DNA of 64,000 bases from Ricordea florida (lineage: Eukaryota > Cnidaria > Anthozoa > Corallimorpharia > Ricordeidae). The stretch covers positions 23,124,285-23,188,284 of the forward strand of contig OX453287.1 in assembly GCA_949710005.1 (NCBI GenBank). The letters are read 5' to 3'. This document shows, piece after piece, positions 2,568-38,900 of this stretch. The notes under the pieces were generated by a model. That model was given only the letters and a program-made list of their open reading frames with translations. It ran no database searches and was not told the origin of the DNA. The stretch's first letter is position 1, and the number at the start of each line of letters is the position of its first letter. The position numbers were made by a program, and so were the translations under genes.

Positions 2568-2631
2568 ATGTTTCTAAAGAGTCTGGCCCTATTGGTTATA
2601 TCGACACTGCCGCATGCGTTCCTCCTTGAAG
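2568..2631 (+). CDS. CAP gene 1 exon 1, signal peptide
   Basis: Encodes a short hydrophobic leader (LALLVISTLPHAFLL) and ends phase 1 at gaag|gtaagt. The first base of a Gly codon is completed by the next exon at 3032. Confidence 0.75.
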
Positions 2632-5600
2632 GTAAGTATCTTCATACTTGCAGGAAGCTAAAACAACACCTATACGATGTAACTCGGTACACGGGTTTTT
2701 CTCAGCTACGTCCTCCATTATGGAACATTTTTTCTGACAATATTTCATACAGATGAAACCATGCAGCGTGACCATTCTTTGTAAAGCTACTGAACAGTAC
2801 TGTACTGTAGTATTGTTTGTTTTACTATACAGTGTGGTTCTAACTTTTTCATCCGTGAATCAAAGCGTGCAGTGTGACCATTCTTTGTAAAGCTACTGAA
2901 CAGTACTGTACTTGGTACTGTTTTTTTCACTATACAGTGTGGTTCTAACCTTTTCATCCGTGGATTAAACCATGCAGTGTGACCACTCTTTGGAAAGCTA
3001 CTGTCCTTATAACTTGACTTTGTTTGAACAGGTGTGAAAGCAAGGGAAGTTACCAGATATGGCTTATTGAAAGTAACAAACCAGATTACAATTCAGCATG
3101 GCAAATATGGGGTGAAAAAGCTACATGAAATCACGAAAAGGAAAACCTTTGTCAGACATGAGAAAGAAGAAACATCCCGAAAAAGGACATTACTGTTAAA
3201 ACCAAAGAAAAAGCAAAGAAATGAAAATCTGGTTGAGCAACTGGCTGTCTCCTCGGAGCTAAACTTCCGTGAAGGGACATCAAAGAAAAGCAAGACTGTA
3301 GCAACACAAGCAAGAAAGACTAACCACTCGGACAGTGATATTTTGCATGCTAAACATGGAAGGGAAGTAATTTTACTGAAAAAGAAGGTAAACGTGGATG
3401 CAAGTGAGAAACGAGCAACGATTGCATTGCCGTCAGCAATGAATCTCACCCGGAAAGACCATCATACTGTGCGGGTGACCCCTACTCTTCTTTCAGCACT
3501 TGCGATGCTTTTAGATGAAAGAAACCACTTTCAAAAAGATTCTAACGCTTTGACTTTAGCAAGGGTGCTCCTAAGCAATGATAGTGTTCTGAAGGATGCA
3601 CAAACGGCTTTATCGAAACTTACGGATCGTACGTTGCCTCTAAAAGAAGTTGCCATGTTGCTGGGAGGCAACTCTACATTACTGGAGAATGAACTTCATC
3701 TAACCAATGCGTCGCCTATCGAGAAACTTATGAATGGTGAACGGAAGTCGACCATATACACAGAGCTTATTAATCCTACAGAGCTTGGTGTCTCCATATT
3801 AAGACTTCTTTTTGGGCCAGAGGCCCCGCTTGTCATGAAACCTAGATACAAACCAATGGTGGAACATGATTGGTCACGCTTGCCAAATCCGGCGGCCTCA
3901 AGTTGGAATTTTAAACCTGAACTTGGGAGCAAACAATTTCTGCGGGGACACCGTAAACCAGCGAGACTTAACTTTGCAAAGAAAAAGAGGCAGAGATCAT
4001 TCTCGTTTGCCCTAGCAAAGGCTGTTAGCGAGATCATTAAGTCTATGGCAAAGGATGAATTGGATACTTATATGCATAAACTTAGTCGCAATTCAGGAAA
4101 GTCGAAATCTTTATCCTTTAGAAAAGTACCATTGCGCTTTTGGCCTTCAAGAAAGAATGTTGACGTTCAGGGAAATAGAAAATCGTGGGTTCTTTTGAAA
4201 ATTCCTAAAGTTGGAGACGTAAACTCAATTCACCAAAAAGCCTTATCTGATAAGCCTCCAGAGGAGGAAGAAGAAAACGTTTTGGAAAACGACGACAAAG
4301 AACTGGACGCAGATAAGGAACCCGCAGAGGCTGGTGGGATTGTTGACACTTTAGGGAAACTAAACGACGCTGAAGCTGCAAAAGCTATCGACAACGATTT
4401 GATGCAGGAGGCCTTGAAAAGTCATATGAAAAATGCGACACAAGCCGTTGCGAATGACATTCCAGTGCAACCTACTCCTCGTGTTGGTTATAGTGTCAGG
4501 GTGTTACCGTCGCTGCGGGGTAGAGGAGGGCAGAAAACGGACTTTGACCAAACAACCATTCGGCCAACTAGAAAAACTGATGCTCCCTCTAAAAATGCCG
4601 CTACGTTTGCACTGGCAGTGAAAAAGCTTCTTCAAGCTGTGCAATCAAGCATTCAAACTTTACAGGGAAAGCATTTGATCGGGTACCCAGAGCCGACGCA
4701 TAAGCCGGTAGATCCCGTTCCCAAAGTCTCCACTGATCAAAGTACGAATACTGGAAGCATTAGAGCAATGGAGTTAAACCAACTTCCTCAGAATGGAAAG
4801 CAAAAAGATCCAATTATTGGACAGTTAGAGCAGCAGACGGGACCGAGTTTGGGGGAACTGACATCTACAGCAAAAGATACGGGACAAAGTAACACTCTTG
4901 TACACCAAAACGTGCTGTTTGATCCGTTAAATGACTTGGACAGTTCGCCATCAGAACCAATAACAAAACAAGCCACTCCGACCAGAGCAAGACCTGGTCC
5001 ATCAGAAAATGTCTTATTTGAGTCTAATACGGAGCTTGGAAGTCCACGAGACAGGCAAGAATCGAACACAATCAAACATCTGAAAGAAGGTATAGCAAAG
5101 GGTGCATGTTTCACGTATTGGATAATACAAATATGAAATTCCAAATGTTTAAACTACGCAGGAAAGATTTAACAAGTGTGAGATCATCACAGTTATGCAC
5201 ACAGCTTAAAAGCATTTGCGAAAGTAAGACCTGAAAAAATTCAGACTTGTACGGGATTCGAACCGATGACCTCGTGATACCGATGCAACACTAACCAAAT
5301 GAGATATCAAGACAACTGGGAGATAGTCCTTTGTGAGTTTGTAATATGCACAAAGAAGATGAAGATATGAATGTGAAAATATGAAATTTCATAATGATAA
5401 TAATGATGGTAAACGCAAAAGGTGAACTGCAACACTTTTAAGGAAGCACATTTATAAGGAAACAACATTACGTACCTAAAAGCTACATCGCTTCAGTTTG
5501 GAGCTATTGCACATTGAAGAAATGGTAAACGTGCAGCGTGCGCCCATCGATTTATGGACGCACGTGGGAGGTTGCTAAGCACGAAAGAAGCATGAGAGAT

Positions 5601-6742
5601 GCTCGAGGCGCAGCCGAGAGCAGCTGTGGCTTCCTGAAGATGGAAGCATCTCTAGCTTCCATAGCTCGATGGTTGCATAGCTGCTGCATTTACCATTTGT
5701 TTTATAACACAAGACTTCACAACATCCAGTGACCACATCGTGTGACAAATGAACAATTTATATTATGATCACACGATGAACAACAACCCGTTCCTTAACA
5801 AGACTTCACAACTTCATTAACTGACGTCAGCATGCAACAAATGGGCAAATAGATCGCGCGTATTAGCCAATGACAGCGCGTGCTATCCCAAAGCTATGCT
5901 ATAATAAATGTTGAAAGTTTTTCTTTTTTAAAGTTTGGTCTCGGAATTAATTTCTTTCGTACTTGGCTCCGCAACTACTACAACAATTTACTATAACTGA
6001 TAAAAATTTCCCATAATTTGAAAGCTCGCTCATATTGTACATTAGAAAAATCTTCTGATTTGAATTGATTCCAAAACAATGATTGACAACTGGTGCTTTA
6101 AAATTGTCTCAAGAAACCACCCAAACCCGATCCTTTTGAACCATCCAAAATCTAGTGATTTTAATATTTGCACTTACTGGACATAAAAAATATATTCAAC
6201 GCTTGTTTTTTGTAATGAATTCTTTTTTTTTTTCCAAAGATCTGGAAACGTTTGCAGAAAGGGGCCTTCAAGCTCACAATCGTTTACGTCAAGAACACCA
6301 TTCCTCAACCCTTCGGTGGTCAGACGAGCTGGCTACCCAGGCAGAGAAGCTTGCTTATGATATGGCAATGAAGGGTGTGGTAGAGAGGTCCGATGACACC
6401 ATGTCTAAAGGTCTTGGAGAAAATGTCGCTAAAATCACCGGAGTCCCATTCAATGATGCTGGTTTAGTCGCCACCGACGTCTGGTACAGTGAATCCAATA
6501 ACTACAGTTATTCTTACCCCAGACTCACGCCGCAAACGGACGCGTTTACGCAACTGGTGTGGAAAGAAACGAAAGAGATTGGTATGGGCTGTGCAAAGGA
6601 TATAGCGACTAATGACTTGTACGTCGTGGCTTTGTACAGACCGCCTGGAAACGACAGGAGATTTCTAAGAGCAAACGTTGTTAACAAAGGATCCACTACT
6701 GAGGACGTTTATGCAACAATATTCAAGAGAACGCGACTATAA
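2568..6742 (+). CDS. CAP gene 1: secreted protein with basic disordered linker and C-terminal CAP domain
   Basis: Three-exon model: 2568-2631, 3032-5089, 6240-6742. Donors gtaagt and gtatag and the two acceptors are all visible, both introns are phase 1, and the coding sum is 2625 nt (874 aa). Exon 1 encodes a signal peptide starting MFLKSLALLV; an in-frame ATG at 2502 would add 22 residues before it, so I chose 2568. Exon 2 is an approximately 685-aa Lys/Arg-rich linker with predicted amphipathic helices. Exon 3 is a CAP (SCP/PR-1) domain of the GAPR-1 type: AHNRLR at the start, GEN, WYSE, the FTQLVW block and a YRPPGN-like block. The family is known for extracellular or membrane-linked binding roles rather than a fixed enzyme reaction. 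The tetrad His before FTQ is Ala (codon 6542-6544). No TSP1 exon is seen, unlike genes 2 and 3. Secretion is inferred; the function is unknown. Confidence 0.8.
2763..3000 (+). repeat. ~106-bp satellite, three copies
   Basis: Units start near 2763, 2869 and 2972 (gcagtgtgaccattctttg...). Each contains the self-complementary acagtactgtact and the stretch actatacagtgtggttctaac. It lies in intron 1 of CAP gene 1. The same unit recurs at 29.7, 41.3 and 55.8 kb. Confidence 0.85.
3032..5089 (+). CDS. CAP gene 1 exon 2, disordered linker
   Basis: A single 2058-nt exon. The first 150 residues are rich in Lys and Arg (runs such as KPKKKQR). Leu/Ala-rich, probably helical segments follow, then a KKKRQR basic cluster, a short Glu/Asp block (about 4258-4320) and a Pro/Thr/Gln-rich tail. 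There are no cysteines in most of it and no recognised domain. Flanked by aacag and gtatag, phase 1 on both sides. Confidence 0.8.
5180..5325 (-). mobile_element. tRNA-derived SINE
   Basis: On the minus strand a tRNA-like head (tatctcatttggttag as A box, perfect B box ggttcgaatcc) is followed by cttgtacg..., a T/A run and cagctgtg-like body sequence. The body matches the arms of the palindrome at 40.8 kb. Lies in intron 2 of CAP gene 1. Confidence 0.7.
6240..6742 (+). CDS. CAP gene 1 exon 3, CAP domain
   Basis: Acceptor after a long T tract (ccaaag). Encodes about 166 aa ending VYATIFKRTRL and stop taa at 6740-6742. Tetrad positions: His in AHNRLR, Glu in GEN and Glu in WYSE are present; the fourth, His in the [H]FTQ motif, is Ala. 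A single Cys lies in GMGCAKD. A possible polyadenylation signal aataaa lies at 7065-7070. Confidence 0.85.
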
Positions 6743-8740: not shown

Positions 8741-8960
8741 GGAGTCTCCTATAGCTCAGTGGTAGAGCATCCGAGCTAGTAATCGGTAGGTCGTAGGTTC
8801 GACTCCCGTTGGGAGAACTCGGATTTCCTTTTCCGAGTTTGCCTGTAATATTGCCAAAAGATACATCTTGCACAGTAAAGGGACTTGTTGCTCATTATTT
8901 CTTGTGCCCTGAACCCTATGCAACAGTAACAAGTTTTCTTCTACATCCGTTATTATTATT
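8741..8960 (+). mobile_element. tRNA-derived SINE with good A and B boxes
   Basis: tRNA-like head 8746-8818: A box tagctcagtgg, B box ggttcgactcc (perfect), a 7-bp acceptor-stem-like pairing (tctccta with tgggaga) and a D-arm. The anticodon arm pairs only 4 bp around an 8-nt loop, so it is not a clean tRNA. The body tccttttccgagtttgcctg... is shared with the copy at 22.8 kb, which marks it as a SINE family. Confidence 0.7.
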
Positions 8961-9748: not shown

Positions 9749-12700
9749 ATGTTGATGAGAAAGTTAGCACAACTGACAATAATAGTTGTATTACTAGTCA
9801 GCTCTGAAGGTGAGTTTTATTTCCTTTATCACATTAATTATGACAGTCCTGCACTGGTGGTCTAGGGATAATTTGCTTGAGAATCCTCCTGGTGGGGGAG
9901 GGGAGAATGCAATCAATTGTTGAGTATAGGGGTGCCTCTAAGGGTTTTGAACTCTGGCTGTTCTCCAAATCTCCATCCATGTCCAATATACTTCACTAGT
10001 ATATACCACACAAGTGAATAGTGCATTTCGCGCGTTCTGATTGGTTTACTCGGAGGTGATTAACAAAGTACTATTCACCTTCGAGCAGCCGACGAGAAAC
10101 AAAACGGCCTCCCCTTTCGGTTTCCGAAGAGGAAATAATTTGAATAAACGCTAGTCATTTAGCTTGTGTGGTATATACTAAAACAATTATTTACCTCAGT
10201 GTCGGTGAAAGTGGTGGATATTTATTCACCTCTACTTCGGTAAATAATTGTAAACTACATTTAAATGGAGTTAAAGTAAGCGTTTCAAGAACCGAAAAAA
10301 GTGATATTCTTTTCACTTCGTAAATTATTGTTACAGGTTCCTTGCCAAAGGAAATATCAGGCAAAAAGCGAAAACACAGCAAACTAACATCTTCGGACGA
10401 AGTCGTCACTCGATCGGCCCTTGTCGGTATAAACCCGGATGACCTTACAACGAGCAGCACTTCAGGTTTGTGTTCCAATAATATCGATTTAAATCAACTT
10501 TTACTATGCGAATCCACAACTTAAGGAGACAGAAATGCTGAATAGCTTTCAAACAAACAGGCCATTGAACGTTTTCCGTTGGTCTGTTCAGTTGTACAAA
10601 TGCGGACCTCAAATGACGTCAAAATATAGTGAGAACAAAAAGAAAAAAAACAAACAAACAAAAATGTTCTTACCACATATCCAAATGTTCTGTAATCTAT
10701 AGCTGAACAAGCCTAGGCACCTTGCAAAATGGAATAGATTTCTTTTCAGCAAGGTAAAGAAATTGAATTTAAGTTCAATTTTTTTTTGCACATCTGGTTA
10801 AAAGAAATCTAAATAAATATTTTTCTGGCATGATTCTGCCAAGCCTAGATCCGAGCTCTGATCTGACATCCGCATTGACACTTTTTGATTTTCCAAGATT
10901 TGACTTTCCTAGATACTAGTACCTCAAGAAATAACGATGTAGATCCATTGGAAAAGCTCCCAGATCTTAAAGGTAAATAATCATGATAACTGATTACCCC
11001 ATATTGCACTATGTTTTAGATTTAATGCTTTTACTTTAGTTGTTTGATCGTATTTGAATCATATATTTTAATTCGTACAAGTTGATTGTTTTCTGTTATG
11101 CTCACTTCATGAATCGAGAATTCTCAATTTGGAAATACATTAGATTTTATTGCATCTGTTTGTTCTTGCTGATCTTTTAGTTTTCATTTTTTGCATTCAT
11201 TTTTTTGGTATGTAGATGAACAACAGCTAACAGAAAAAGCGCTGGAATATTCACGTTTATTGTCTCCAGTCGATCAACGCTTAGTGAAAGAATTTGATAA
11301 AGGTGAAAGTATAATTTATAATTTCGCAGACAAACTTAAAGCTAATTAGTTTGTTAGTGCTTTTCTTACCAGGAACGCAGTTGTACATGACGATTAATCT
11401 AATAATTAATAATGTTATTTGAATGGCGAGCAGTTAATATACAAGAAATTGGGATAATTAAAAAAGTTGATAAAGTAATTCGTACCACGGAGGTGCTGAC
11501 GTTTCGAGCGTTAGCCATTCGTCAGAGAGAATGACCGTTAACCGTTAAATATATATATATGTTATTTACCGGGCAGGAGGTCCGTATGGGAAAGAACTGT
11601 GCCCGAGGACTTGAGTACGGCCCATATTTTGGATGTCCTCATTTTAAAGTAACAAGAAATAGAAAATTGCTACAGCGGTGAAAAAATACGGCCCGTGGGC
11701 CGTATCGTAAAATGCTGGACCGGTCACGCGCGCGTAATTAGCCAACCAAGTTCGACGATTTAGGATTGCGGCCCGCTCAGATGCTTGAGAAAAAAACAAT
11801 ACACTTGCATATGGAACTGTCCCGTTAACGCGACGCAAAAATTCTATGCGTCCATATAGTAAAATGAACAATTCAGGGCAGCTTAAAGATATGATCATAA
11901 ATTTGGTTTCCTCGCGCTAAAAACTATATTCAGTCAATTAAGCGCCTATGTGTAATATCTTTTGTATACCTCATTCTAGCACTTTGCAGTATTATTTTAT
12001 TTGATTTCTTGAACAAAAAAAGAGATCTACTCGGAATGTTTGACCAGGAGAAGATATTTACACCTATGAACTAACTTGATGTAAGCCTAATGTACCGAAC
12101 GTTAACTTTTACCCACCATGCCTTGTATCAAGAATAAACCGACCCTCAATGGTATATTAAGGGTGCGTTCCTGTGGTATGATCAGGATCTGGATTTGCAT
12201 GGATCATGACACATCAAAGGAATCGATGAATCCTTGTCCAGAGTGGATTCATTGACCCCTTCGGTGCTCCATGATCCGAGTGATAACAAATCCAGATCTT
12301 AATCATATTAAAGGAACACACCGTTACAGTTTTCCTCTTTTCAGCTACCACAAGTGATGGGAATGTTGTGCCGGCCAGTTCTGAGCCTAAGATGGAAGAA
12401 ATAAACGTCCTAAATGCCTCTCCTGAACTAAAGGCAACGAGAAGTAAGTAACGAACATCTTCAGTTTCACTACTCTTAGCACGTGCATCAGTAAAGAACA
12501 ACACTTCTTTAAAATGCAACTTCTACTGTTTCTAATGAACTTCTACCGAACTACCGAATTTATTACTTCAACAAATTTGAAAAAGATTTATAACAACCCC
12601 TTAACTGGAGATTAACTATTTCTGTATTTCCCTGAAAACAATGCTAATGCTTCAATTCTCAAACAAACAGTAAGTTCAGTTGTAGAACTTATTGTGAGAA

Positions 12701-15700
12701 GACTTTGTGTCTGTTGTGGTTCAATTTTATCCTTGGTTCAAATTTGGTTTTCTTTTGTTTTGGTCATGGTAAGTTGATGGTAATGAGTTTGAAACAAAGG
12801 AAAATAAAATTTAAACCAAGGATAAAATTGAACCACAACATACCCAACATAAGAAAAAGAAAAGCAGAACTGTACGATACTTAGGGATTAAAACTACAGA
12901 CGAGCTTTTGTTGTAATTTCCTTTTCGCGCAGTTTTCAGACTTGACGTTGAAGATGACTTAGAATTGTACAGAATGGTCGCCTGTTTGAGAGACAGTATA
13001 ACACTGATTTCCTTTCTCGCAGATGTTAGTAGATATAATAGGGCCTTGCAATTGCCTGACCGGGTAATGGGAGATGGACTGGGGCGAACAGACGAGTTCG
13101 ACCCGTTACGCGATCCAGATAAAGAAGAGTTTAGTAAGCAATTCACTTCAGTGTGCACGTGCATGCAGTGGTGCTAATTAAACGTTTGCATGCACTTTGG
13201 AAGGCCCCCAAACTGACAAAAATGCATACTAAAAAGACACTATTTCGCCCCGTAACATGAGCGGTGTGCGTGAAATGGGGAAATCACATGCAATCGATAT
13301 CGCAAGCTTAATAAGTGGGGAAATTCTACTATTTCCAGTAAAAAAAGGAAGAGTCTGTGCAGGCAGGAGGCCTGTTGCAAGTCCTTTTTCGTCATATCAC
13401 AAGCAAGTGACAGTCTAAAAAAGCCTGTCTTATGGTTCGTGTTTTGTATGTTTTGGAAGTTGATAGGATTGTTCCCTTGAGAAGAGGCAGTTCAGGAAAC
13501 AGAAAATTGTCAGAAAGCATGCAGTTTTGGACAGAGCAAGTTGAAACTAGGCAAAACGTTGCTAAAGTTAAACGTGTTTAGGATCTGGACGTCTATTATA
13601 GACTTTCAGATACATGGACAACGCATGAAAATTAGTCAACGACGTAGTGGGGTTTTAAAAAAACTTTTAGGTCAGCGGTCACCGAGCAAGATGGTCGTGA
13701 AATTTATAGCTCCGGGCTAAATAGGGAAAAAGTTAAATTTTTTTGTGCTATTTTTCATATCTACCTTAGTACATGTGATATTTTGTGTATTAACATGTCA
13801 TCAACTACGAGAGGAAGTAAGAAACTGTCAAGGGATGCATCAGAAGAAGATTTTGAAACGTATGTTCGCGAGCTACTGACACGCTTGTGCGAAGGTCAGA
13901 ACAAGATCATACAGGACATCTCTAGTCTGAGAGCAAAAGTTCAGTCTAATGAGACGGCATTGGTTAAGCTTTCGAAACAATTTACGACCCTCAACCAAAG
14001 TTTCGAGGAGCTCAAAGGAGAACTTCATGATGCAAGATGCAAAGTCGATGAGATAGGAAGCTCGGTTCAAAACCATACCACGCAAATCGCTCAAATGAAT
14101 GAGCGTTTGCTGTCCCTCGAGCGTTACTCACGCGAATACAATCTTCGTTTTCATAATATACCAGAATCTCCTGGCGAGGTTTGCCTACAGAAGATTAACG
14201 ATATTCTAGCAAACCAGCTAAATGTGGAGCCGAAAATTGAAAACGCCCATCGAGTGGGAGCAAGAAACGATGGTAAGTCACGAGCGATAATTTGTAAGTT
14301 TGTTTATCGTTCAGAGAGATACAAAGTTATTCAGAAGAAGCGTGACCTTAAAGATGGTGTTTGGATCACAGAGGATCTGATTTGGGAGGACCGAGAGAAA
14401 AAGAAGAAGCTCAGAGATGTGATGAAGGAGGCGTTTGAGAGGGGAAAAAGGCCAAGATTTCATCATGGAAAACTTTATATTGATGGAAATTTGTATAGAG
14501 AAACGTAGATGTTAATTCCATTGATCAGGTTAGTTAAAATATGCAGAAAAACCTTCTGTTGTCCTACATCTAGTTTATCTTTAACTGGCATATTAAGTTA
14601 TTTAAAATAGCCAAATGACTCATAACACGAATGATCCAGATTTAAATGTGCAATCATTTAATGATCATGGAATATTTACAGTAGAAGAGCTTAATGAACT
14701 CTCCTCTGTCGTTAAGCCGCAATTCTCGGCACTTCATCTTAATATAAGAAGCCTAAGTAAACACTTTGATGAGCTACTCAATCTTTTGGACTCCATTCCT
14801 TTCGAAATTGATATGATTGCTTGCTCAGAAACATGGATCACTCCCCAAGTCGATCTAGATAGCATAAGAATTACAAATTACAATATGATAATAGATAACC
14901 GCATGTTTTCAACAGGCGGCGGAGTTGCTCTTTATCTAAAGTCAAACTTTGACTATACAATAAGAGATGATCTTAAAATAGATGGCATTGAAAATATTTG
15001 GGTGGACACACAAGGCTTGTTAATTGGCGTTATGTATAACCCACCTAAAAGGTCCCAACGGGAATTTCTTGATGAATTTGAACAAGTTTTGCATTCCATC
15101 TTTTTGTCAAAGCGTAAATGTTTGATTCTAGGTGATATCAATATCAATACACTTGTTAACAGCGCAATAGCAAAGGAATACCTTAATCTAATTTATTCGG
15201 AAGGCTTTAATCCCCTGATATTTGAAGCAACACGTATAACTGACACCTCAATAAGTTGTATAGATCATATTCATTCCAATTTTGTATCTTCAAGTACAAG
15301 TGGTAGTATTGCTGTGGAGATAGCTGATCATTTACCTGTTTTTACCCTTTCATACGATCCAACACAAAGTCCATTTCCTGATACTATTGAAATTAGAGAT
15401 TTTAAAGGGTTTGACAAGATTGCTTTCCGTGATGAATTAAGGAATGAAAATTGGAAGTCGGTTTATAACAGCAGCGATGCAAATGAAGGCTTAACAAGAT
15501 TTCTGCACATATTTAACAGAATTAGCAATAAACATGCACCAATTAAATTAATTAAGATCAAAAGTAAATCTAACAAACCCTGGGTAACTAAAGGCTTAAA
15601 AAAATCTATCAAAGTTCGAAATCAGCTTTATAAAAGATGGTTGACAACTCGTAACAGCTATTATTATGATCGATATAAAATTTATCGAAACAAAATCGTT

Positions 15701-18700: not shown

Positions 18701-19650
18701 ACAATCCGACAGCAAAGCTGCAAATAATATTTTATCGAAGGATGGAAGAAAGGGAAAAGAAAACTTGGTTACGTTGAAAATTTCCAGAGGAGGAAAACCA
18801 ATTAGTTTTAAAGCCGACACAAGCAACGATGGGTCGCTGGTATTGAAGATTCCAGGAAATGTCACGTTAATGAACACTGCGGGTAATAAAGACACAGAAG
18901 AAGCAATACCTGCTGACAAAAGCAAGACTTCAGATTCGAGACTTTATCAACAAACTGGTCGACTAGATAACTTAAACTTTGACACTAATGTACCCGATCT
19001 ACAGGATTTTGTAAAGAAACAAAAAATGGTATCGAGCAATGCCGACAACATGGAGGGTCTCAGCGGTTGGCAAATCCTTGGCAAGACAAATCCCTCGTTG
19101 GGTCACGAAGAGTTTAAGGAACAAGCAGAAGTACACAATATCGTACAGTCTGCTTACAAGTTCCCATCATCAGTACAACCAACACAGGGCCAGTTTGGCC
19201 ACGCTCTTAGCGAAGGACCAACTGCAAAACAGGAGTGGAATCAAGTGCCCACGGCTAAGAGCAACGACCTCAATTCAGTTTCTTTTACTGGGGTTGGGCA
19301 ATCACCGCCATCAGAATTATTTCCTTCAAATTTCAGACTGAGGAAAACCTTGCCTTTAAGACAAATTTTGAGACCTTCGAAGTTTATTGAGGACGCCGCA
19401 GATGTGAGAGCGAAATTGCGCTTTGGCTCCATGTACGCTGCAGAACGGAAGTTTCATCATGGTAAGCAGTTACCATTTATTCACTCTAATTTATTCAGAT
19501 GAGAGGTTTGATCTTCGCAGCATTAACGTATTTTATAGCAACTGGCTGGAACGGGATCGATTTAAACCAGCCACCTCGCGAATATCGGGCTACCAGCTGA
19601 GATAAACTAACAATTCACTCTACAATGCAAATATATGATTTATTTCATAC

Positions 19651-19696
<46 letters not shown>

Positions 19697-22646: not shown

Positions 22647-22960
22647 TGAGCAGAACCTACGAACTTCCGATTATTAGTTCGGACGCTCTACCACTTAGCT
22701 ATAGAAGACTGGTTGGAATAAGGTCATTAAACTAGATTCATAGGACAAACATCCTCCACGCTGCTAGGATTCTTGAGTCTCCTGTGGCACAGTGATAGAG
22801 CGCCAAACTAGTTATCGGAAGGCTGTGAGTTCGAGGCCTATTGAGAGAACCCAAATTTGCTTTATTCGAGTTTGCCTAAGACAGTGCCGAAAAATACACT
22901 CTTCACAAACTATCCAGACTCAAAATATGACACCTTCATAATTTCACGACTGCAATGAAC
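22647..22960. mobile_element. Two SINE copies, head to head
   Basis: 22650-22715 is a minus-strand fragment of the SINE head (gtctatagctaagtggtag type). 22775-22905 is a plus-strand copy (gagtctcctgtggcacagtg ... gagttcgagg ... tttattcgagtttgcct). Same family as 8741-8960. Confidence 0.65.
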
Positions 22961-24091: not shown

Positions 24092-27000
24092 ATGGCACTT
24101 GTAAAAGTTTTGACTTTATTCTTGATGACGGCTGCCTTAAACCAGGAGAGCGTCAGTGGTAGGGTAATACTTCATCATTAAAATGGATTAGTTTTATGCA
24201 ATATTCTTGGTATCTGATCCTCTATTCAGTCAAAATTAACGTTGGCACTTCGCTTTGCAGGAGACATCAGAATCGGAAGAAGAAAGATGGAAATCATTCA
24301 TAACGGGAAACCTTTGCAAGGTTGGTAGAATGTCAAGTTATGTTTTAGCATCAGAATGGTGCTCGGTATAAACGGTACTCTACTGACGTATTCATTAAAC
24401 CTTGAAACGGAAACTCACCCAGTTGGAGATTCGATTCTCGAAGTATTTAAGCATTTGGGGGGGCATATCCGATTTAGCCTGAAAAAGAGAGGGGGCTGGA
24501 ACGGGCTGAAACAGCCGTCAATGTTTCCAGCCCGTAGTAAAAATATATTAGTATAAATACTCAGGTGATTATACAAAATCGCGCGCTCTGATTGGTTCGC
24601 TATCTCGGATTATCAGCCGATAATCACCTCGACGAACAAAATGGCTGCCAGTCGTTCGCGCGCTTTTGATGAAATAAAACTTTTTCGTGTTGTAAAATGC
24701 TTTTCTTTTCTTTTTTGAAATAATCACCAGTGTATTTATACTAAAACAATTATTCGCCTCAGGCTCAGTGATTCTCGGTGAATATTCACCAAGAATCACT
24801 TCGCCTTCAGCGAATAATTGTTAAATATTATTCAAAGCAACTGATCAATCGGAAATCCGCACAGTAATCTTTAAGTAACAATTGGTCATTTGTACATTTT
24901 TAAAAAGCCTTCGAGTTGAAAACATCATAAGCTTTGCAATACAGCATCCCTAGTAATACACCAGTTGCTTTGGCTACGCATTTCTGCAATGTTATTGGCT
25001 ACATAATTTCGCGCCATTTCTCAACCAATCAGAAATAAAGACATTGAACTCCTCACTCATATAGTTTCCAAAGTGTCTAGCAGCGAAAGCCTTAGAGCTT
25101 TCTTTCCATAACAACGCATTTTGGTTATACCTTACAGCCTTATCTATAACAACTAATAATAACAATTAAATAACTATAACAAAGTAAGGAAACTAGAGTA
25201 GGGAATTTCTCCTTTGATAAAAGTTTTTTTTTTGATTTCTCGTTTTAGCGATGCTTCAAGACAATGGCATTGAGGACTTTCACCCGTTAGACCGCACCGT
25301 AGACACAGGCGACAATCAGGGACAAGAGTACGGAAAACAGAGCAGAGCCTCTGTATCAGTGCCTGAATCCGATGATTCAGATAAAGAGTTAAACGTAGAT
25401 GATATGCCTGAGTATGGACAAGAGACAAAGGCGGACTTCAAAGGAAATCAAGAAGCAATCGACTGGCTCCTAAGAGATCCCAATGAGTTTAACGTGAAGT
25501 CCTATCAAGACACAAGTTTGTTAGGAGATGACTCGGAGCATGACCACATGGACGACCTGGATGCAGATGTCGACATTGGTAATAAGCAATCTCAATTCCA
25601 TAGAAAAAATGGTGGTGCTAAGAGACAACAGGGAGAGCCATATGCACAATGGGATGACAATGACTCCATTGACGGGTTTAATACTGAGTCAGCTGGAGAT
25701 AATACTTTGTTAGAAGATTATGCTGATGGTTTTGATCATGGCCACGGAAGGCACTCTTCACGTTCTCAACACGAGAAATTCGATGAAAGTGGCGGCACTA
25801 CCAAGCAACGAAATTACCACGGCAGAAAGGGCGGAAGGACAAGAGAGCAAGCGTTATCATCCCTGGACAATAATAATTTTGCTGAAATTGAAAGCAGGGA
25901 AGGAAACCATCGAGATGAGAAATTCGAGGATGATAACACGCATTTACAGCCGCATCACGTGACCCCCGGAAATAGAAAAGAGTTTAGTAAGACAGCAGAA
26001 AGGGGTCAGAGAAAGGATTTCAACAGGAACGATGATTATGATGATGACTATGCAATGAAGAGCAGCAACATCAACAGTATTGACGGCAAATATGGACAAG
26101 ACTTGACTGATAGTGAATTTACAAACTACAATGACGGAGACAATGGAGGGGATGAAACTGAGAGCGACAGCTCATTGTCACAAAAAAATGTTAACAAACA
26201 AGTCGAATATCAAGACGCAAAATTATTCAAAGAGCTTGCAAACTTCCAACACTTTGAAGAGAACGAGATTTTTGACGATAAGAATGATCTCGATAATTTG
26301 GATACTTTTTCGGATAAAATGAATGATACAGATGATTACAATAGTTCGGATAATACGTATAGCTGGGATAACCTAGATGATTCCGATAGCTCGAATAATT
26401 CAGACAAATCCGATAATTCCGATAGTTCGGATAGCTACGAGAATCCGGTCAAATCGGATGATTCCGACAGTTCGTATAATTCCGATAATGGGGCAAAATC
26501 AGGTAATGCAGATAAATATGAAGGGACTGATGACGAAATTTACAATGAAGATAAGCAAACGGACGAGAAACAGTCTGATGAACAAAATGGTAACAAAACA
26601 TCGGATGATGATGGGGAGGATTCCGGAGATAGCGATAACGAAGATTCTACGTCTGATGAAACAGACCAAAAGAAACCCCACAATCGTCCGGTAGGTACTG
26701 GATACGAACCTGACGATGAACCCGACAATGACGAAGAAGGAGGTAACGAAGCTGACAGCAAGAGCACAGGGATGAAATACCAAGATGGAAATCAGGAAGT
26801 AAAGATGGATAAAGATGAAGAGACAAACGATCACAGCAGTCGTGGAAGTAAACAAGGCAGTAGCGAAGATCGGGTTAGTAATGTAGATCACAATGGAGAA
26901 GTGAAAAACTTGGAAAGTAAAGTTCCAAGCCATAAGGTTACAAATGACAACAGTCCAGGGTACGATGCAATTAACAGTTCAACACGAGATCACGACAAGG

Positions 27001-29595
27001 AAAATCATGGCGGGAAAGCTCAAGGGAAGGTAATGGGCACTTCAATTGCTCCAGATAATATAATACAAGACTCCAGAAACGGAACAGACAGAGATCATGA
27101 GAAAAACAGACATTTGGGAGTTGAGGGCGCGAAAAGCATCACGGGTGATGTTGGCAACATCGTCAGAAATGATTCTGTTAACGCAAAGAATGCCAATACT
27201 GGTATTGGTGCTCAAATGAGCTCGCCTGAGAACAGAATAAGACCTTTGAAAATGAGAAACAACGCTATCTCACTTGAGAAAACAATGGAGCAGAATAGTG
27301 GTCACGCCACGGAAGTGCAGCATTTTAAAACGGAAGAAGAAGCTTACAAATTGAGCGAGGAGATGGGCAAACAAGAAGAAAGTCATGTAGAACCATTTCA
27401 GGTTAACAGAGACCATAACTCAAATAAAGGTCCCGATTTATTTATGACGGAGTCGTTTGTCCGCGACCATTATCACAGCCAACAACCAAAACAGTTGGCG
27501 CAAAATCATCGCAAGCAAAGAGACGAATTTCACAGGAAAGATTCTACACGGCATCATCGATGGCACAGCTCTTTGCCGCGCATGTACTCAATGGCAGATC
27601 TCAACAAGATGGAAAAAATTGTGTCTTCTTTAAGGGCAACTGCCGCTTCAAAGTCTCTGCCATTCAAAAAGCAACACGGAGACGTCTCAATCAAAAGTCT
27701 CTACTACTACCCACTCCACCCTACTCCTCAAGATGAAAGTGACCTCCCCGAACCAAAAGGTAAGATATTCAAGACGCATGATAATGGTTAGAACATAACA
27801 ACTAATCAACATAGCGTTGAATATCTCGGGATATTCAACTCTATGAACGTCCTGTGCATGTGCAAAATACAGTCCAAACTTATGATTCACTATTTTTCAT
27901 AATTTCAGCATCAAGAGTAGCTTGTCCTTTTTGTTACTCCTAGTGTAAAGCCATAGGTTTTAAGCAGTTTCTTCAAATGATCAGTTTTTTAAGTTCTCAT
28001 ATTATCCATAGGTGTTGTTTTTTTGTAACTAAAAATCATCCAGTCTGTATATTTTATTTGGAGAGGCCATCACCCCCGAGTGAAGTTGGTATCCTCAACA
28101 GAAATTATTTCAAAGCTACTGATCAGCAATGTAGAGTAGCACTTTTGGTTTTACTCTAGTGTGACACTAAGATTTTTCACCTGTAGACCAAACCATAGAG
28201 CAGTTTTTGAGCATTGTTAAAAAGATACAGTACGATAATTGTTTTTCAGATCGTACTTTCAGTGAGTGGAATGACTGGTCCACGTGTTCTGTGTCATGTG
28301 GTAAGGGAACAACAGTCAGAGCACGTGTATGTCTCATGGCGCCATGCCAACAGAAGGACATGTACCAAACAAAGGCGTGCCACAAACCCATTTGCCAAGG
28401 TACACACTCACATCATTGCACGTTTTAAGCAATACAACATAATCATTTGGGAGCTCCCGCAAACACGACGACAACGCCAAAGGAGACAACTGTAAAAAAA
28501 ATGACTTTGCCTTCCTCCTGTGCTAATGGCAGAATGCTTGGGAAGCCCGTGTAAAAAATACCGGCCAAATACAGTTGGAAATAGCCTTGCAAGGATTGGT
28601 ACCCCAATTAGAAAAGGTCCCGATTGACCTTATTCGCTTGTAAATTTTGTTTTCCCAATAAAGACCATGTGATGATACTCATGAGATTTTATCGTTTGTC
28701 TTGTTTATTAAAAAGAGTGCATGCAAGCATGATATGCCTGCCTGTACTCTTTTTAATGAACAAGACATCTCCTGAGTATTATCACATGATCTTTACTGGG
28801 AAAACAAAATGTACAAGCGAATAAGGTTGTTTGGTATCCCAATTAGAAAAGGATTGCGTGGGCTACCTTGGCTTGACTGCGCTTTACTCAGTTACTGAAG
28901 GACTGAAAATTCTTCTCCTTCAAATATTAATAATAACAAATAATGATAACAATGATAATAGTAATAATTATCACTTATCATTATTAAGATTTAATTACTT
29001 ATAAGACGCAAATCCATATATGATCAAATGCTTGTATTAATATTTCCTCTCGTTAAGCTAAAACACACAATCTACAATCATAGATGAACTGCAAATGGAG
29101 TCTTTGGATGCGCATAACGAGGTCAGGACAAAGCATTTCTCCCCACCGCTGGTGTGGTCTGCATCCTTGGCGAAAAAAGCGCAAAAGATCGCGAACAAGC
29201 TTGCGAGGAAAGATTTTCTTACTTTAGACGATCTGCAAGAGCCACCAGGAGAGAGCATCGCTCAGCTTAAGTACACTGGAGGAAACGTGGTAAAGAAAGC
29301 TATTCACAACTGGTACAACGAGGTAAATTCATATAGCTTTTCATATCCGAAGATAAACGACAGGACACGACACTTCGTGCAAATTATTTGGAGACAAACA
29401 AAAGAGTTGGGAGTAGCCACTGCCAAAAGCGCGAGCGGAGATTACGCTTTCGTAGTTGCACTTTATCATCCACCCATAGACAACAAAGGTCACGTGAGAC
29501 AGAATGTTTTACGTCCAGGTTCTAAATACGATGTGTACTCAACATTTCGAAAAAGAACACTAGATAAATCCGACACAAAGTTGGGGAAAGACTAA
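24092..29595 (+). CDS. CAP gene 3: secreted protein with very acidic linker, TSP1 repeat and CAP domain
   Basis: Five-exon model: 24092-24158, 24261-24320, 25249-27759, 28250-28399, 29084-29595. All introns are phase 1 and the coding sum is 3300 nt (1099 aa). A strong acceptor (cctctcttgcag) at 24068, upstream of the ATG, implies a non-coding 5' exon. Order: signal peptide (MALVKVLTLFLMTAALN), a basic 20-aa exon with IGRRK, an 836-aa Asp/Ser/Asn/Glu-rich exon, a six-Cys TSP1 and a CAP domain with an intact tetrad (AHNEVR, GES, WYNE, RHFVQ). The acidic block resembles phosphophoryn-type and other biomineral or calcium-binding acidic proteins in composition only. Calcium or matrix binding is inference. 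The exon 2 donor (gttggt) is weak. Confidence 0.8.
24549..24830. mobile_element. Foldback MITE in CAP gene 3 intron 2
   Basis: Begins tagtataaatactcagg, contains cgcgcgctctgattggtt, and repeats gtatttatactaaaacaatt before a second foldback (acaattattcgcctcaggc ... gcgaataattgtt). Same family as 9995-10251. Confidence 0.65.
25249..27759 (+). CDS. CAP gene 3 exon 3, giant acidic disordered exon
   Basis: 2511 nt, acceptor cgttttag, donor ggtaagat, phase 1-1. Encodes about 836 aa dominated by Asp, Asn, Ser, Glu, Gly and Lys, with no Cys. The densest part (about 26320-26520) is short Asp-Ser-Asn words such as DSSNNSDKSDNSDSSDSY, built from imperfect DNA repeats of the type gataattccgatagttcg. The C-terminal 100 residues turn basic and His-rich (HHRWHSSLPRMYSM). 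Confidence 0.85.
28250..28399 (+). CDS. CAP gene 3 exon 4, TSP1 repeat
   Basis: 150 nt, phase 1-1. Encodes WNDWSTCSVSCGKGTTVRAR followed by four more Cys: six Cys and two Trp, a standard TSP1 repeat. Acceptor gtttttcag, donor ggtacac. Confidence 0.88.
28596..28852. mobile_element. Foldback element flanked by 22-bp direct repeats
   Basis: Arms of about 47 bp (28627-28673, accttattcgcttgta...) pair with 28781-28827; a further arm pair lies near the centre. The outside is bounded by 22-bp direct repeats, 28596-28617 and 28831-28852, with one mismatch (accccaattagaaaagg / atcccaattagaaaagg). Lies in CAP gene 3 intron 4. Confidence 0.75.
29084..29595 (+). CDS. CAP gene 3 exon 5, CAP domain
   Basis: About 170 aa to the stop at 29593-29595. 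The tetrad is intact: His in AHNEVR, Glu in GES, Glu in WYNE, His in RHFVQIIWR. VALYHPP block and DVYSTFRKR tail. No cysteine, as in GAPR-1-like CAP domains. Confidence 0.88.
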
Positions 29596-32608: not shown

Positions 32609-32768
32609 TCTTAAGCTACAAAATCATTACAAACTCTGGCAACGGTACGATACACTTTCAGCGTGAACTTTCATCAACAGACTTTCGTGACTTCGGTCAC
32701 GACAATTGTCGTCTTCATATCGGTGCCCCCGAGTTCTATCCGACTAATTACGAAGTGTGTCTACACTG

Positions 32769-32809
32769 GAGTGAGTGAGTGAGTGAGTGAGTGAGTGAGT
32801 GAGTGAGTG
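32769..32809. repeat. (GAGT)n microsatellite
   Basis: About ten perfect gagt units. Confidence 0.9.
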
Positions 32810-34501: not shown

Positions 34502-37500
34502 ATGGACAACAATCCACGGATTCAGTTACGTCGCTTCATTGTTCTGCTACTATTTCCACTCATCATACTATCCCTAGGTAGGTAGAGTCTTACCCTTTGT
34601 TAAGAAATTTATGATGTGTCTCTCACAGTGTTTGTACATGTAATACAGTTTGCCGATGAAAGCGTGCTCCTACCAAACACCGCAGCATAAACAACAGGAA
34701 CAAAAAAGTGCGAGTCAAGCTTGAAGTGCGTTTTTATGAGAGGTTATTTTGGGTCGGTAAAATAATGCTACATGCTATCCAATTTGAAAAACTAATTGGA
34801 TGAAAAAAAAATTTCCAAGTACAGACAAAATTGGAGCGTCATTTAAAGATTCGAACGGATGAATTTTGAATTATATGTGTGCGCGTTCCGTTGAAGAATT
34901 GCTAATTTGTGGACGTTTTCTTTGCAAAGAGCCATTTCACAATTGTTTGTTCCAACAGGCTGGGTTTGAATCACGCTACAAGTGGAAGTAGCTATCTCAC
35001 ATGCAACTTCTGAGCTTGAATTATTTGGTTGCTTTTTGGTTGAGAGGCAATAACACCACAATCCGGACAACGAAAAAGTGTATACGAGAAGTCGAATTTC
35101 TTGTGACATAATTACTTGATAGATGAATGAACATTCACAGGAGATTCTTGAAACATAACAATAATAAATATAAAAACAGTAATAATCCTACTTATAAAGA
35201 TAACAATGATAGTGATAATAATAACCGGTATTAATAATAATAACAATAATAATAACAGCAATAACAACAACAATGAATGTGAATACATGACTACCTGGAG
35301 TTTACATTTGAACAGTATAGTAGATAGCTGTCATAGAAGTTAGCTATGGTAAACGATGGCCTTTCCATATTCAAATCATTTTTCTCATGAGCAAGTCGAT
35401 TCAAGCGTTTTCCAATTCATTTTATACTCGAATATTTTTCACTGGAAGACTAAAGTGGGTTAAACATATTAGTTGATATGTAACAACTTGACAGCAAAAT
35501 GCTTTTTCTTCCAGAGCCGAAAGCTAACCACACACAGCAACATGCGGGAAATTCTGCAAATGCCATCAAAAAGAGTGTGCATAATGTTCTTGGTCCAGGA
35601 GAGGTCATTAAAGGAAGAACACAGCTAGTGAAGCACTTTTATGTACGAGGCGGTAGGAGAATAGACGTGCAGAGACCGTTTGAGGATGGTAATAGTACAT
35701 AAGTGGTTTGAGTGTGTTATTCCTTACAGCTGTTTTGGGTCGTCATGGGACGCTACATCGCGACACTAAAACGGCTGCTGGGGAGATAAGCTTAAGCAAA
35801 TGAATAAAATAATATGGATAATCCCTTTATTTAGGTGTTGATGTATTTAACACTGCTGTGCGAATTGGAGGCACTGTTAATAAGTAGAGCGTAAAATTCG
35901 GTGAGAATTCAAACTGGTAGGAGACTGACCAGTTGGCGATTAACAAGCGTAGTCGACGAAACTTGCAAGGCATGAGGCTGTTACAAATTCATTACTTGTA
36001 GCGGTCAGGGCAGGAACTAAACCCGAGACGACCATACTAATTCAAGTCTGTCGCACTGAGCACTCTCCAAAGCTGTCACCCTCGTGGGACATGTTGGAGA
36101 AAGGAGGTTCAGAAACGCCCACATTACAAAATTAATCACTTCTTGGGGATGAAAGGGTCGATTAACGAGATGAGGAAGTGTTTAAGACCCACTAGAAATT
36201 AGGTCTCTGATATACCAGTAACGTTTCCTCTTGTCACGAAAGATGTTAGCGACGACAGCCGAGAATATGAAGACGAAGTTCCAGAGGATTCTCCAACGGC
36301 AGAGATTCTGGGCGAGGTTGCAGGCAAAGAAAGGAATAAAGAGGAGGTATTCGACAACGAGAAATCCTACAAATCACGGAAGGGTGAATACGAATTACAG
36401 GAAGGACAAAGATTTGGTAAGTTTTGTAGGTTTCGATTCGTAAAACCTTTCAATATAACTTTTAAAAGCTGCGTCAAACAAGGAAACTTCTGGTCCTGCT
36501 CGAAAGGCGATCAACGTTCACAAACGAATATAGCGTGACTTGTATTACAGGAGCGTAGCTAGGATTTCCAAAGGGAGGGGTGGGAGGAGCTCACACAGTG
36601 TCAAACCCAGGGTACCTAACAGATTGTACTTACCATGCACATCGTGTTTTACTAAATGTAACTATCTAGCACTGGAAAAGATTGATTGCATGTTGATTCT
36701 TCGGATTCGCGTGTTCTCGCCACCTGAATTATAGGGACATAAAACAATTATCTCACAGGGAGGAGGGTCACAGGCACCCCAGGAACACCCCCCCCCCCCC
36801 GTAGCTACGCCTCTGCATTACTATAATTTTATTAAGAAATGCTCTTCCTTTTTAGGAAAAGAAATGAATAAGCAAAAAAATAAGGAACTGAGCGTGCAAA
36901 TAATGGCGCCGGACGCCTTCGAGGACAAACAGCAAACTTCGGATGGTTCCGACACAGAGGGTAAGCTGGCGTTGTTGTAAATATAACGTTCCCACTTGGG
37001 GATCGTTCATTTTTTACGAGGAAGGGGGGAGGAGCTGGTGGGATTTGGAGGCAAGCACTCGAAAAAACGGTTTTCGAGGGGGGGGGGATCACCTGAAATA
37101 TTTTCGCAATACTTTGAAATCACATAATGTTTTAACAGGAACCCATCAATGAAATCGCTGCTTCAAGGGAGGGGGGGGGGGGGGAGGGGGGCTTGTAAGA
37201 AAAAATAGCAAGCCGAGGGGGAGTGACGCAATTTTTAAGTGGTTCTTCCCGAATCACACCAGCCCCACCTCCCTCGTAATAAAGGAAAATTAGGAGTTCA
37301 CGCTTTCTTAAAAATTTCTTCACAGTGAACAGTGTCCAAATCTCACCGATATGGCACTAGAATCTAAAATTCACACAAAATTGATCACCATTTCCAATAT
37401 ATATGCACAGCCACCAGTTTTTTAAGCGCCTTAATTAATAAATTGGTCGTGAATGTAAACGGATTTTTTTGTTGTGGGTAGAATTGAATATTGTTGCTAT

Positions 37501-38900
37501 AGTACTGATGCGACTAAAGATTTATAACTAGCAAATAAGAACTAGCAAATAAGAAACACGAATGCTTGATTTTCTTTCCTTGCATGTGCATGCTACAAAC
37601 AAAAGGTGCCACACGTAAAACACTACAGATTTACATAGCAGAAGAGCAAGCAGACCAGCAACGGCAAAATGACTCTAACAAGAAAATCTTTCAGAAAGCT
37701 ACCAACGGAACTGTTAAACACGACATCAAAACCAGAAACAACACTGGAGTGGCGACTGTCCTTCACAACAAAACAGAAAACGGCAAAAATTCTACTGCGA
37801 ATCTTTTCCACGACAGTAGGTCCATGAATAGTAGGAATAACACAGCAAAGATCATCCGAGACCGTAAGCCAACAAACAGCAGTAAGTAACGTTAGTAGCA
37901 CAGATGTAAGAGATAAACTTAGCTTCGAAGAAAGCTACAAAGGCTTGAGGCTGGCTTATAGACCATAAGGTCAGTCGTAATTTACACATGCTCTCAAACA
38001 TAAAGAGTTCCTCTCCACCCCCCAGTCCCTCATCAATGTTGCCATCAATGCAAAACCATGTTGAAAAGTTAAACATACAACATTGACAGGGTAGTGATTT
38101 GAAGGAAGAAGGGGTTTCAAAATGCCTCAACACTTTTTGTGACTTAATCAGGCACCATCCAGCGACGCTTCGTATTTTCTAGTCAATAACCAGTCAAACC
38201 AATGACTTAGGAAGCATCAATGAGGCCTTTTCCCACGTGTTTTTCGCACGTTTGGTCCGAGACGCTTTCGTGGGCGTCTCCGAGGCAGCACATGTGGGAG
38301 GCACCACTCGGTAACGCTGCCCATGCTTGTGGCAAATTTCGAAAAAATTCCTTTAAGAACACTAACAGGTTGTTTTTTTTTTTCATAGATGCAGTTTTTC
38401 AAGAGGCTCTCGTTGCTCACAACCGCCTGAGAGCCATGCACCATGTACAACCACTACAGTGGAACGCTACCTTAGCATCAGAAGCGCAACAGATTGCCGA
38501 TTCTGTGGCCTCGGACCCGTCCACCTTCCAAGGTGAACCAGCTGGCGAAAACATCGCTCAAATATGGCATGATCTGCCGCGGGCTCCCCTTAAGGCCATC
38601 GGCATCTGGTACGGTGAAAAAGGACAGTTCAGTTACTCATATCCTCAACTGACGGACAAAGTTAAACACTTCACGCAAATGGTTTGGAAAAGCACCAATC
38701 AATTGGGAATGGGCGCAACACCGAGTCCCAGTGGCAAATACGTCATAGTGGTTGCACTGTATAGACCAATAGGAAATGATGTCCACCAAATGAGAGATAA
38801 CGTTTACAGAGCGGGCGAAGCAAGCGATGTGTACGCGACCATAAAAGAACGCATTTCCAGGCCAAATGAGGACAAACACCTTAATCAAAAGGCGTCATAA
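34502..38900 (+). CDS. CAP gene 4: short secreted CAP protein, no TSP1
   Basis: Six-exon model: 34502-34577, 35515-35688, 36243-36416, 36856-36960, 37606-37881, 38389-38900. All introns are phase 1 and the coding sum is 1317 nt (438 aa). Signal-anchor-like leader MDNNPRIQLRRFIVLLLFPL, then four short linker exons of mixed charge, then a CAP domain with an intact tetrad. Exon 3 reads as an acidic Glu/Asp-rich segment (EYEDEVPEDSPTAEI) only in the phase set by splicing; a longer unspliced ORF in another frame is misleading. There is no TSP1 exon. The Asn-rich exon 5 offers several N-glycosylation sequons. Confidence 0.78.
35840..36090 (-). mobile_element. Degenerate tRNA-SINE
   Basis: Minus-strand tRNA-like remnant (gagagtgctcagtgcgacag ... 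gggtttagttcctg) with a body resembling the SINE at 19.66-19.97 kb (aggcactgttaataag). Lies in CAP gene 4 intron 2. Confidence 0.4.
36243..36416 (+). CDS. CAP gene 4 exon 3, acidic linker
   Basis: 174 nt, acceptor tcacgaaag, donor ggtaagt, phase 1-1. Glu/Asp-rich. The acceptor pyrimidine tract (tttcctcttgtc) supports the call. Confidence 0.65.
37606..37881 (+). CDS. CAP gene 4 exon 5, N-glycosylation-rich linker
   Basis: 276 nt, phase 1-1, donor gtaagt at 37882. Rich in Asn, Lys and Thr with sequons NGT, NNT, NKT, NST and NNT; a further NSS-like site spans the splice. No known domain. Confidence 0.7.
38389..38900 (+). CDS. CAP gene 4 exon 6, CAP domain
   Basis: Acceptor after T10 (tttcatag). 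About 170 aa: AHNRLRAMHH, GENIAQIW, WYGE, KHFTQMVWK, VALYRPIGN, DVYATIKER. All four tetrad residues are present; no cysteine. Stop at 38898-38900. Confidence 0.9.

What the first reader, a model, noticed from the sequence alone, without database searches (positions are those of the whole stretch)
2568..38900. Modular four-gene array of secreted CAP proteins with unrelated linkers
Four tandem same-strand genes share a first signal-peptide exon and a last CAP exon, but the exons between them share no recognisable sequence. Every intron is phase 1 and every internal exon is a multiple of three, the classic exon-shuffling design. Coding sums close without a frame error in all four (2625, 2781, 3300, 1317 nt). 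This looks like a gene family that keeps one domain and freely exchanges its linker. I know of no described family with this layout.
Basis: partly seen in the sequence, partly recalled or inferred. Interest (0 to 1): 0.8.

Follow-up and report, generated by a model that had tools for sequence, protein, structure and literature searches.

The report
Mushroom-coral secreted CAP gene array
Four neighbouring genes of what is probably a mushroom coral (a soft relative of reef corals) encode secreted proteins that share one end domain of a known family but carry long, floppy, unrelated-looking chains in front of it; it is a new arrangement of known parts rather than a new kind of system.

Summary
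I rebuilt them: signal-peptide-like exon, linker exons, terminal CAP exon, every intron phase 1. Splice-phase and codon-usage controls favour the models. Two corrections. First, the exon before CAP in genes 2 and 3 is a thrombospondin type-1 domain, so those two genes share a recognisable middle module. Second, "freely exchanges its linker" is not supported: the linker exons searched (all of gene 1's, most of genes 2 and 3, 91 aa of gene 4) found no second copy in the 538-Mb genome beyond one E 5.12 match, and no linker pair beats shuffles. The four CAPs group together among 19 compared, GAPR-1 type; all four lack GAPR-1's His54, kept in 13 of 14 other CAPs compared. The mitochondrial contig has a corallimorpharian layout, so the host probably makes no skeleton. 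CAP plus TSP1 is already reported from red-coral skeleton (CR_3-4), in the opposite order. Best reading: secreted matrix proteins, a new variant of a known kind.

The parts
2568..2631 (+). gene 1 exon 1, ATG + signal-peptide-like stretch, phase-1 donor
3032..5089 (+). gene 1 linker exon (685 aa; whole-linker pI 9.8; no Cys)
   Evidence: no Pfam family at E 0.1
6240..6742 (+). gene 1 CAP exon with stop; H54 and H103 equivalents are R and A
9749..9809 (+). gene 2 exon 1, signal-peptide-like
10337..10465 (+). gene 2 exon 2 (linker)
   Evidence: 10 of 300 chance intervals as good
10913..10972 (+). gene 2 exon 3 (linker); acceptor second-best
   Evidence: 0 of 249
11216..11302 (+). gene 2 exon 4 (linker); acceptor third-best; weakest coding score
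   Evidence: 34 of 419
12345..12443 (+). gene 2 exon 5 (linker)
   Evidence: 7 of 386
13023..13133 (+). gene 2 exon 6 (linker); donor second-best
   Evidence: 0 of 340
17905..19461 (+). gene 2 long linker exon (518 aa)
   Evidence: no Pfam family at E 0.1
20412..20546 (+). gene 2 TSP1 exon, six Cys, CSVTCG motif, no WXXW
   Evidence: Pfam TSP_1 E 5.6e-10; low codon score
21149..21600 (+). gene 2 CAP exon with stop; H54 and E65 equivalents are L and V
24092..24158 (+). gene 3 exon 1, signal-peptide-like
24261..24320 (+). gene 3 exon 2 (linker)
   Evidence: 9 of 249
25249..27759 (+). gene 3 long acidic linker exon (836 aa, Asp/Ser-rich; whole-linker pI 4.66, net charge -85)
   Evidence: no Pfam family at E 0.1
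28250..28399 (+). gene 3 TSP1 exon, six Cys, WNDW and CSVSCG; donor third-best, acceptor second-best
   Evidence: Pfam TSP_1 E 1.5e-10; low codon score
29084..29595 (+). gene 3 CAP exon with stop; H54 equivalent is L; acceptor third-best
34502..34577 (+). gene 4 exon 1, signal-peptide-like (possibly a signal anchor)
35515..35688 (+). gene 4 exon 2 (linker); donor second-best
   Evidence: 2 of 159
36243..36416 (+). gene 4 exon 3 (linker)
   Evidence: 0 of 159
36856..36960 (+). gene 4 exon 4 (linker); acceptor second-best
   Evidence: 0 of 376
37606..37881 (+). gene 4 exon 5 (linker); acceptor not among the four best-scoring
   Evidence: (0 of 35)
38389..38900 (+). gene 4 CAP exon with stop; H54 equivalent is Q

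Best explanation
The stretch is a tandem array, probably old, of four paralogous secreted CAP genes of GAPR-1 type, most likely in a corallimorpharian (mushroom coral). Each protein is: signal peptide, a 243-858 aa Cys-free and largely disordered chain, no or one TSP1 domain, and a C-terminal CAP domain. Shown from sequence: the gene layout (as models), the domain identities, grouping of the four CAPs, failure to find relatives of the linker exons searched, and loss of GAPR-1's first metal-site histidine in all four CAPs. Inferred: they are matrix or mucus proteins. CAP and TSP1 act as docking heads on sulphated glycans or acidic lipid surfaces; the chain acts as a spacer or brush whose length and charge differ from gene to gene (linker pI 9.8, 5.9, 4.7, 8.1). 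Because the metal site is eroded, the CAP head probably binds or assembles without zinc and has no enzyme-like role. The linkers look unrelated because disordered exons are under weak sequence constraint and diverged or arose in place, not because they are swapped between genes; only TSP1 behaves as a gained or lost module.
For: Gene models and phases. Of 10 short linker exons kept out of the training set, 9 score within the top 5% of chance intervals and one (gene 2 exon 4) within the top 8%. CAP and TSP_1 by Pfam. Nearest solved relatives of the gene-2 CAP: GAPR-1 1smb E 1.6e-26, then Pry1; AlphaFold model from the four CAPs pLDDT 75.3, best Foldseek hit GAPR-1 1smb E 6.9e-10, TM 0.69. Window CAPs group 100/97 in a 19-row tree. 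H54 lost in 4 of 4 window CAPs, kept in 13 of 14 others; all four site residues intact in 0 of 4 against 12 of 14. Linkers: 0 Cys, TOP-IDP-high windows 60-71% against 22-35% in the CAPs. No second copy of the linker exons searched beyond one E 5.12 match. GAPR-1 self-assembles with heparin, and His54 and His103 matter for the zinc route (PMC6803662 passages). WXXW and CSVTCG are named as GAG- and scavenger-receptor-binding TSR motifs in cnidarians (PMC5446238 passages); gene 3 has WXXW, gene 2 has CSVTCG.
Against: No transcripts and no second species could be examined. Some sites are weak: 3 of 19 donors and 6 of 19 acceptors are not the best-scoring in their stretch, notably the gene-3 CAP acceptor and the gene-4 exon-5 acceptor. 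In-frame ATGs lie before the CAP domain in the CAP frames of genes 1 and 4 and at its edge in gene 3, so shorter products are possible. The TSP1 exons score as non-coding by the codon measure, whose training exons hold one Cys codon. Neither TSP1 has both named binding motifs (gene 2 lacks WXXW, gene 3 has CSVSCG). Gene 1's linker has helix-prone stretches in a very low-confidence single-sequence model. Charge-hydropathy distance hardly separates linker from CAP for genes 1 and 2. The tree and site counts use only CAPs whose DNA was fetched, a part of the 72 hits. Glycan or lipid binding is extrapolated from human GAPR-1 and other TSRs.
Confidence: 0.6

Rival explanations
1. Exon shuffling of linkers: each gene captured a different pre-existing linker exon from elsewhere through its phase-1 introns.
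For: The exons are class 1-1 and could move. TSP1 is present in 2 of 4 genes only. A second locus, C10 21.10-21.15 Mb, has CAP exons around a 2637-aa Glu-rich open frame whose borders also look phase 1 on reading. Not every linker exon was searched.
Against: No donor or second copy of the linker exons searched, one E 5.12 match apart.
Confidence: 0.1
2. Skeletal organic matrix proteins: the acidic chain of gene 3 and the CAP/TSP1 heads serve calcification as in corals.
For: CR_3-4 (GAPR-1 + 2 TSP1) occurs in red-coral skeleton and has a putative homologue in stony-coral skeleton (PMC7853314 sections 13 and 17). Gene 3 linker pI 4.66, net -85. Two CAP proteins also occur in sponge spicules (PMC12419799 passage).
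Against: The mitochondrial contig has a corallimorpharian layout, and Corallimorpharia are called the closest noncalcifying relatives of corals (PMC8382919 passages). Linker charge is not consistently acidic.
Confidence: 0.06
3. The CAP exons are separate short genes and the linker exons belong to other or no genes.
For: Six CAPs at C16:4.3 Mb of the same genome show no TSP1 hit and no comparable long linker that I recognised. The CAP frames of genes 1 and 4 have in-frame ATGs upstream and gene 3 one at the domain edge; gene 2 has none. Some acceptors are weak.
Against: TSP1 exons with matching phase stand between linker and CAP in two genes; 9 of 10 short linker exons score in the top 5% of chance intervals; each unit of the array repeats the same order.
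Confidence: 0.12
4. Nematocyst, venom or mucus CAP effectors, in which the linker is a propeptide cut off during secretion.
For: CAP proteins are listed among sea-anemone venom-type transcripts, six of 13 in Anthopleura dowii being likened to a coral matrix protein (PMC6722582 section 19). Linkers contain basic-pair or RxxR sites.
Against: Nearest relatives of the gene-2 CAP are GAPR-1 and Pry1, not CRISPs; no C-terminal Cys-rich domain; no repeated processing unit noticed in the linkers (direct reading only).
Confidence: 0.12

Closest known systems
CR_3-4 of Corallium rubrum (and its putative stony-coral matrix homologue, possibly ectin of Acropora millepora)
   Same: Secreted GAPR-1-type CAP joined to TSP1 in an anthozoan (PMC7853314 passages and sections 13, 17).
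   Different: There CAP comes first and two TSP1 follow; no long chain is mentioned in what I read. Here TSP1, at most one, precedes CAP. That ectin is a CAP protein is recalled; a table passage lists ectin as a 400-aa skeletal fragment with signal peptide, no domains given (PMC4043741), and says six CAP-family transcripts resemble a coral matrix protein printed as 'lectin'.
CAP/TSP1 locus of the same genome, C13 4.787-4.824 Mb
   Same: CAP domains and TSP1 domains on one strand.
   Different: TSP1s lie 3' of the CAPs; the two CAPs examined carry extra Cys and intact metal-site residues. Whether it is one gene or several was not modelled.
Human GAPR-1 (GLIPR2)
   Same: Best solved match; same CAP type.
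   Different: Single domain at the cytosolic side of the Golgi, with the His/Glu site intact; the window models are secreted-type and lack H54.
Yeast Pry proteins
   Same: Pry1 is the second-best solved match; signal peptide, low-complexity region, C-terminal CAP (layout recalled).
   Different: Fungal, no TSP1 (recalled); linkers not compared.

Membership tests
CAP superfamily (PF00188) | full CAP domain over the curated cut-off | tested here: met
   62.8-85.5 bits against a cut-off of 21.1, 4 of 4
GAPR-1-like CAP | closest relatives are GAPR-1/Pry1 rather than CRISP or Ag5 | tested here: met
   gene 2 CAP: 1smb 1.6e-26, Pry1 2.1e-18, plant PR-1 1.7e-11, CRISP-type venom proteins 7e-7 or weaker; fold search with the same domain agrees. 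Only gene 2 was searched.
GAPR-1-like CAP | His54/Glu65/Glu86/His103 metal-site residues | tested here: not met
   intact in 0 of 4 window CAPs, 12 of 14 other CAPs of the genome, and GAPR-1. His54/His103 from PMC6803662; Glu65 as site residue is recalled.
CRISP | Cys-rich C-terminal domain | tested here: not met
   CAP is followed by at most a short Cys-free tail and stop
CR_3-4/ectin-type matrix protein | CAP followed by TSP1 | tested here: not met
   TSP1 precedes CAP in genes 2 and 3; none found in 1 and 4
CR_3-4/ectin-type matrix protein | found in mineralised skeleton | not testable with these tools
   no proteome; host is probably non-calcifying
Class 1-1 modular secreted protein | domain exons bounded by phase-1 introns | tested here: met
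   18 of 19 best donors and 17 of 19 best acceptors phase 1, in stretches laid around my exons
   no convincing second copy of the exons searched; gene 2 exons 2-6, gene 3 exon 2 and gene 4 exons 2-4 not searched
Coral acid-rich proteins (CARP/SAARP) | homology to the CARP4 family | not tested
   only composition was looked at: gene 3 linker pI 4.66

The most novel reading that the evidence does not exclude
A lineage-specific matrix kit: duplicated CAP heads gave up their metal site and serve as fixed end-anchors for rapidly renewed charged chains. The four chains form a set of opposite charge (basic gene 1, strongly acidic gene 3) that co-assembles by charge in a soft, non-mineral extracellular material.
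Probability: 0.12. Interest if true: 0.7.

Novelty: new variant of a known kind. Interest (0 to 1): 0.4.

Why it matters
A CAP-like protein with TSP1 is one of nine protein families reported in the skeleton matrices of both red and stony corals, and its authors say its function remains to be clarified (PMC7853314 section 17). A related but rearranged array in a probably non-calcifying sister lineage would show that such parts, including a strongly acidic chain, exist without mineral. That cautions against reading acidic secreted chains as calcification genes, and gives a natural comparison: same head, four different chains, eroded metal site.

Tried and rejected
Neuropeptide-precursor reading of the linkers: no repeated amidation units seen on direct reading; not tested further. 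Linker homology by Smith-Waterman: 0 of 6 pairs above shuffles. TSP1 remnants in genes 1 and 4: none by motif scan, and none below E 1 with a five-sequence HMM, list cut at 60 rows. TSP1 of genes 2 and 3 as each other's closest relative: not shown; the gene-2 copy ranks 21st of 66 listed matches to the gene-3 copy, self included, 150 of 323 candidates scored. TSP1 next to other CAP loci genome-wide: inconclusive, only 150 of 622 candidates were scored. Gene 2's missing 90 nt: not located. Dating or dN/dS: no second species on hand. The CAP tree and site count use 18 genome CAPs plus GAPR-1; left out were C10 12.8k/16.0k and 17.2k/19.3k, C16 23.06 Mb, C15 8.4k, two C13 near-copies (7.7k, 16.3k), and the hits whose DNA was not fetched. 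Paper searches for this layout listed no description of a signal peptide-disordered-TSP1-CAP family; most listed papers were seen only as listings. The Acropora skeleton paper PMC3748352 is not held.
Full report
What is there. The window is contig 16, 23124285-23188284, of a 538-Mb genome in 48 contigs. I rebuilt four same-strand genes: gene 1 with 3 exons (2625 nt), gene 2 with 9 (2691 nt), gene 3 with 5 (3300 nt) and gene 4 with 6 (1317 nt after moving the exon-5 donor to 37881; 438 aa). Each opens with an ATG exon coding a hydrophobic signal-peptide-like stretch (judged by eye; no predictor was run) and closes with a CAP exon that holds the stop codon.

Is it more than chance? Exon borders can be bent to fit a frame, so I scored sites by a generic consensus without regard to phase, though in stretches laid around my own exons. 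The best donor is phase 1 in 18 of 19 stretches and the best acceptor in 17 of 19 (P 3.5e-7 and 5.9e-5 against the phases of all GT and AG there). My chosen sites are the best-scoring in 16 of 19 (donors) and 13 of 19 (acceptors); the weakest are the gene-3 CAP acceptor and the gene-4 exon-5 acceptor. Open frames of 702, 547 and 851 codons compare with a maximum of 210 in 60 simulated strands. Of ten short linker exons not used for training, nine score in the top 5% of chance intervals and gene 2 exon 4 in the top 8% (34 of 419); the two TSP1 exons score as non-coding, the training exons holding one Cys codon, and rest on Pfam instead. Phase-1 borders are the general rule for shuffled extracellular modules (PMC8001218 passages), so the phase pattern supports the models more than it supports novelty.

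The exon before CAP in genes 2 and 3 is a TSP1 domain with six cysteines; gene 2 has CSVTCG without WXXW, gene 3 WXXW with CSVSCG. Genes 1 and 4 show no TSP1. The long linker exons have no Pfam family at E 0.1, no cysteine and no mutual similarity above shuffles (0 of 6 pairs). In the genome, the gene-1 linker finds itself and one E 5.12 match, and the long gene-2 and gene-3 exons and the largest gene-4 linker exon find only themselves; the shorter exons were not searched. So the only module seen to come and go is TSP1; linker exchange is unsupported, not excluded.

The CAP heads. Nearest solved structures to the gene-2 CAP are GAPR-1 and Pry1. A four-sequence AlphaFold model (pLDDT 75.3, last 18 residues below 50) finds GAPR-1 first, at rmsd 5.7. 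In a 19-row tree the four window CAPs are one side of a branch with support 100/97; the order within them is open. Aligned to GAPR-1, position 54 is R, L, L and Q in the window, while 13 of 14 other CAPs keep His; gene 1 also lost His103 and gene 2 Glu65. His54 and His103 matter for zinc-driven assembly of human GAPR-1 (PMC6803662 passages). The window heads therefore probably work without zinc.

The host. Contig 48 (21,378 bp) is mitochondrial. In the 19,000 bases read, nad5-3', trnW and nad5-5' stand together, while nad1, cob, nad4L, nad3, atp8, cox1 (with an intron-like open frame), cox3, cox2, nad2, nad4, nad6 and atp6 lie elsewhere; rns, rnl and trnM were not located (genes named by reading the translations, except cox1 by Pfam and trnW by ARAGORN). 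All genes but trnW inside the nad5 intron is reported for Rhodactis, Discosoma and Ricordea florida (PMC10167242 passages), and Ricordea florida is listed at 21,376 bp (PMC3989238 passages). The host is thus very likely a corallimorpharian, a group called noncalcifying (PMC8382919 passages). A skeletal role is therefore unlikely in this animal.

How it probably works (inferred). CAP and TSP1 dock on glycan or lipid surfaces; the chain (243-858 aa, pI 4.7 to 9.8) sets reach and charge. GAPR-1 forms fibrils with acidic phospholipids (PMC7853314 section 17) and with heparin plus metal, and TSR motifs bind glycosaminoglycans (PMC5446238 passages). None of this was measured for these genes.

Comparison with the known. 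CR_3-4 of red coral is GAPR-1 followed by two TSP1, in skeleton matrix, with a putative stony-coral homologue (PMC7853314 sections 13 and 17). The same genome holds CAPs with TSP1s 3' of them at C13 4.787-4.824 Mb. The window genes have the opposite order, a long chain and an eroded site. I file them as a new variant of GAPR-1-like CAP proteins, not as members of the CR_3-4 type.

Noticed in passing
13648-17527 (+), inside gene 2 intron 6: A LINE-type element: a coiled-coil-like ORF (weak Pfam matches only) and a 973-aa ORF with endonuclease and reverse transcriptase domains (RVT_1 E 4.4e-36).
   Followed up: partly
43221-46921 (-): A run of ORFs including an OTU-like protease (E 1.5e-8); the set reminds me of a Helitron-type element (recalled, unverified).
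   Followed up: partly
L014-L018 (C10 21100001-21150000): Several CAP exons around a 2637-aa Glu-rich open frame whose borders look phase 1; possibly one large multi-CAP gene.
   Followed up: partly
L034:2977-3696: A 239-codon Ser/Gly-repeat open frame in the mitochondrial contig between nad2 and nad4.
   Followed up: no
8750-8820 and 22785-22855 (+): Two tRNA-like stretches, perhaps tRNA-derived short interspersed elements (direct reading; ARAGORN was not run on the window).
   Followed up: no
gene 1 linker, 3034-5088: Helix-prone stretches (model residues 150-260 and others) in a single-sequence AlphaFold model of very low confidence (pLDDT 38.9).
   Followed up: no
genes 1, 3, 4 C-termini (before 6742, 29595, 38900): Shared short tail DVYAT/DVYST near the stop, absent in gene 2.
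   Followed up: no
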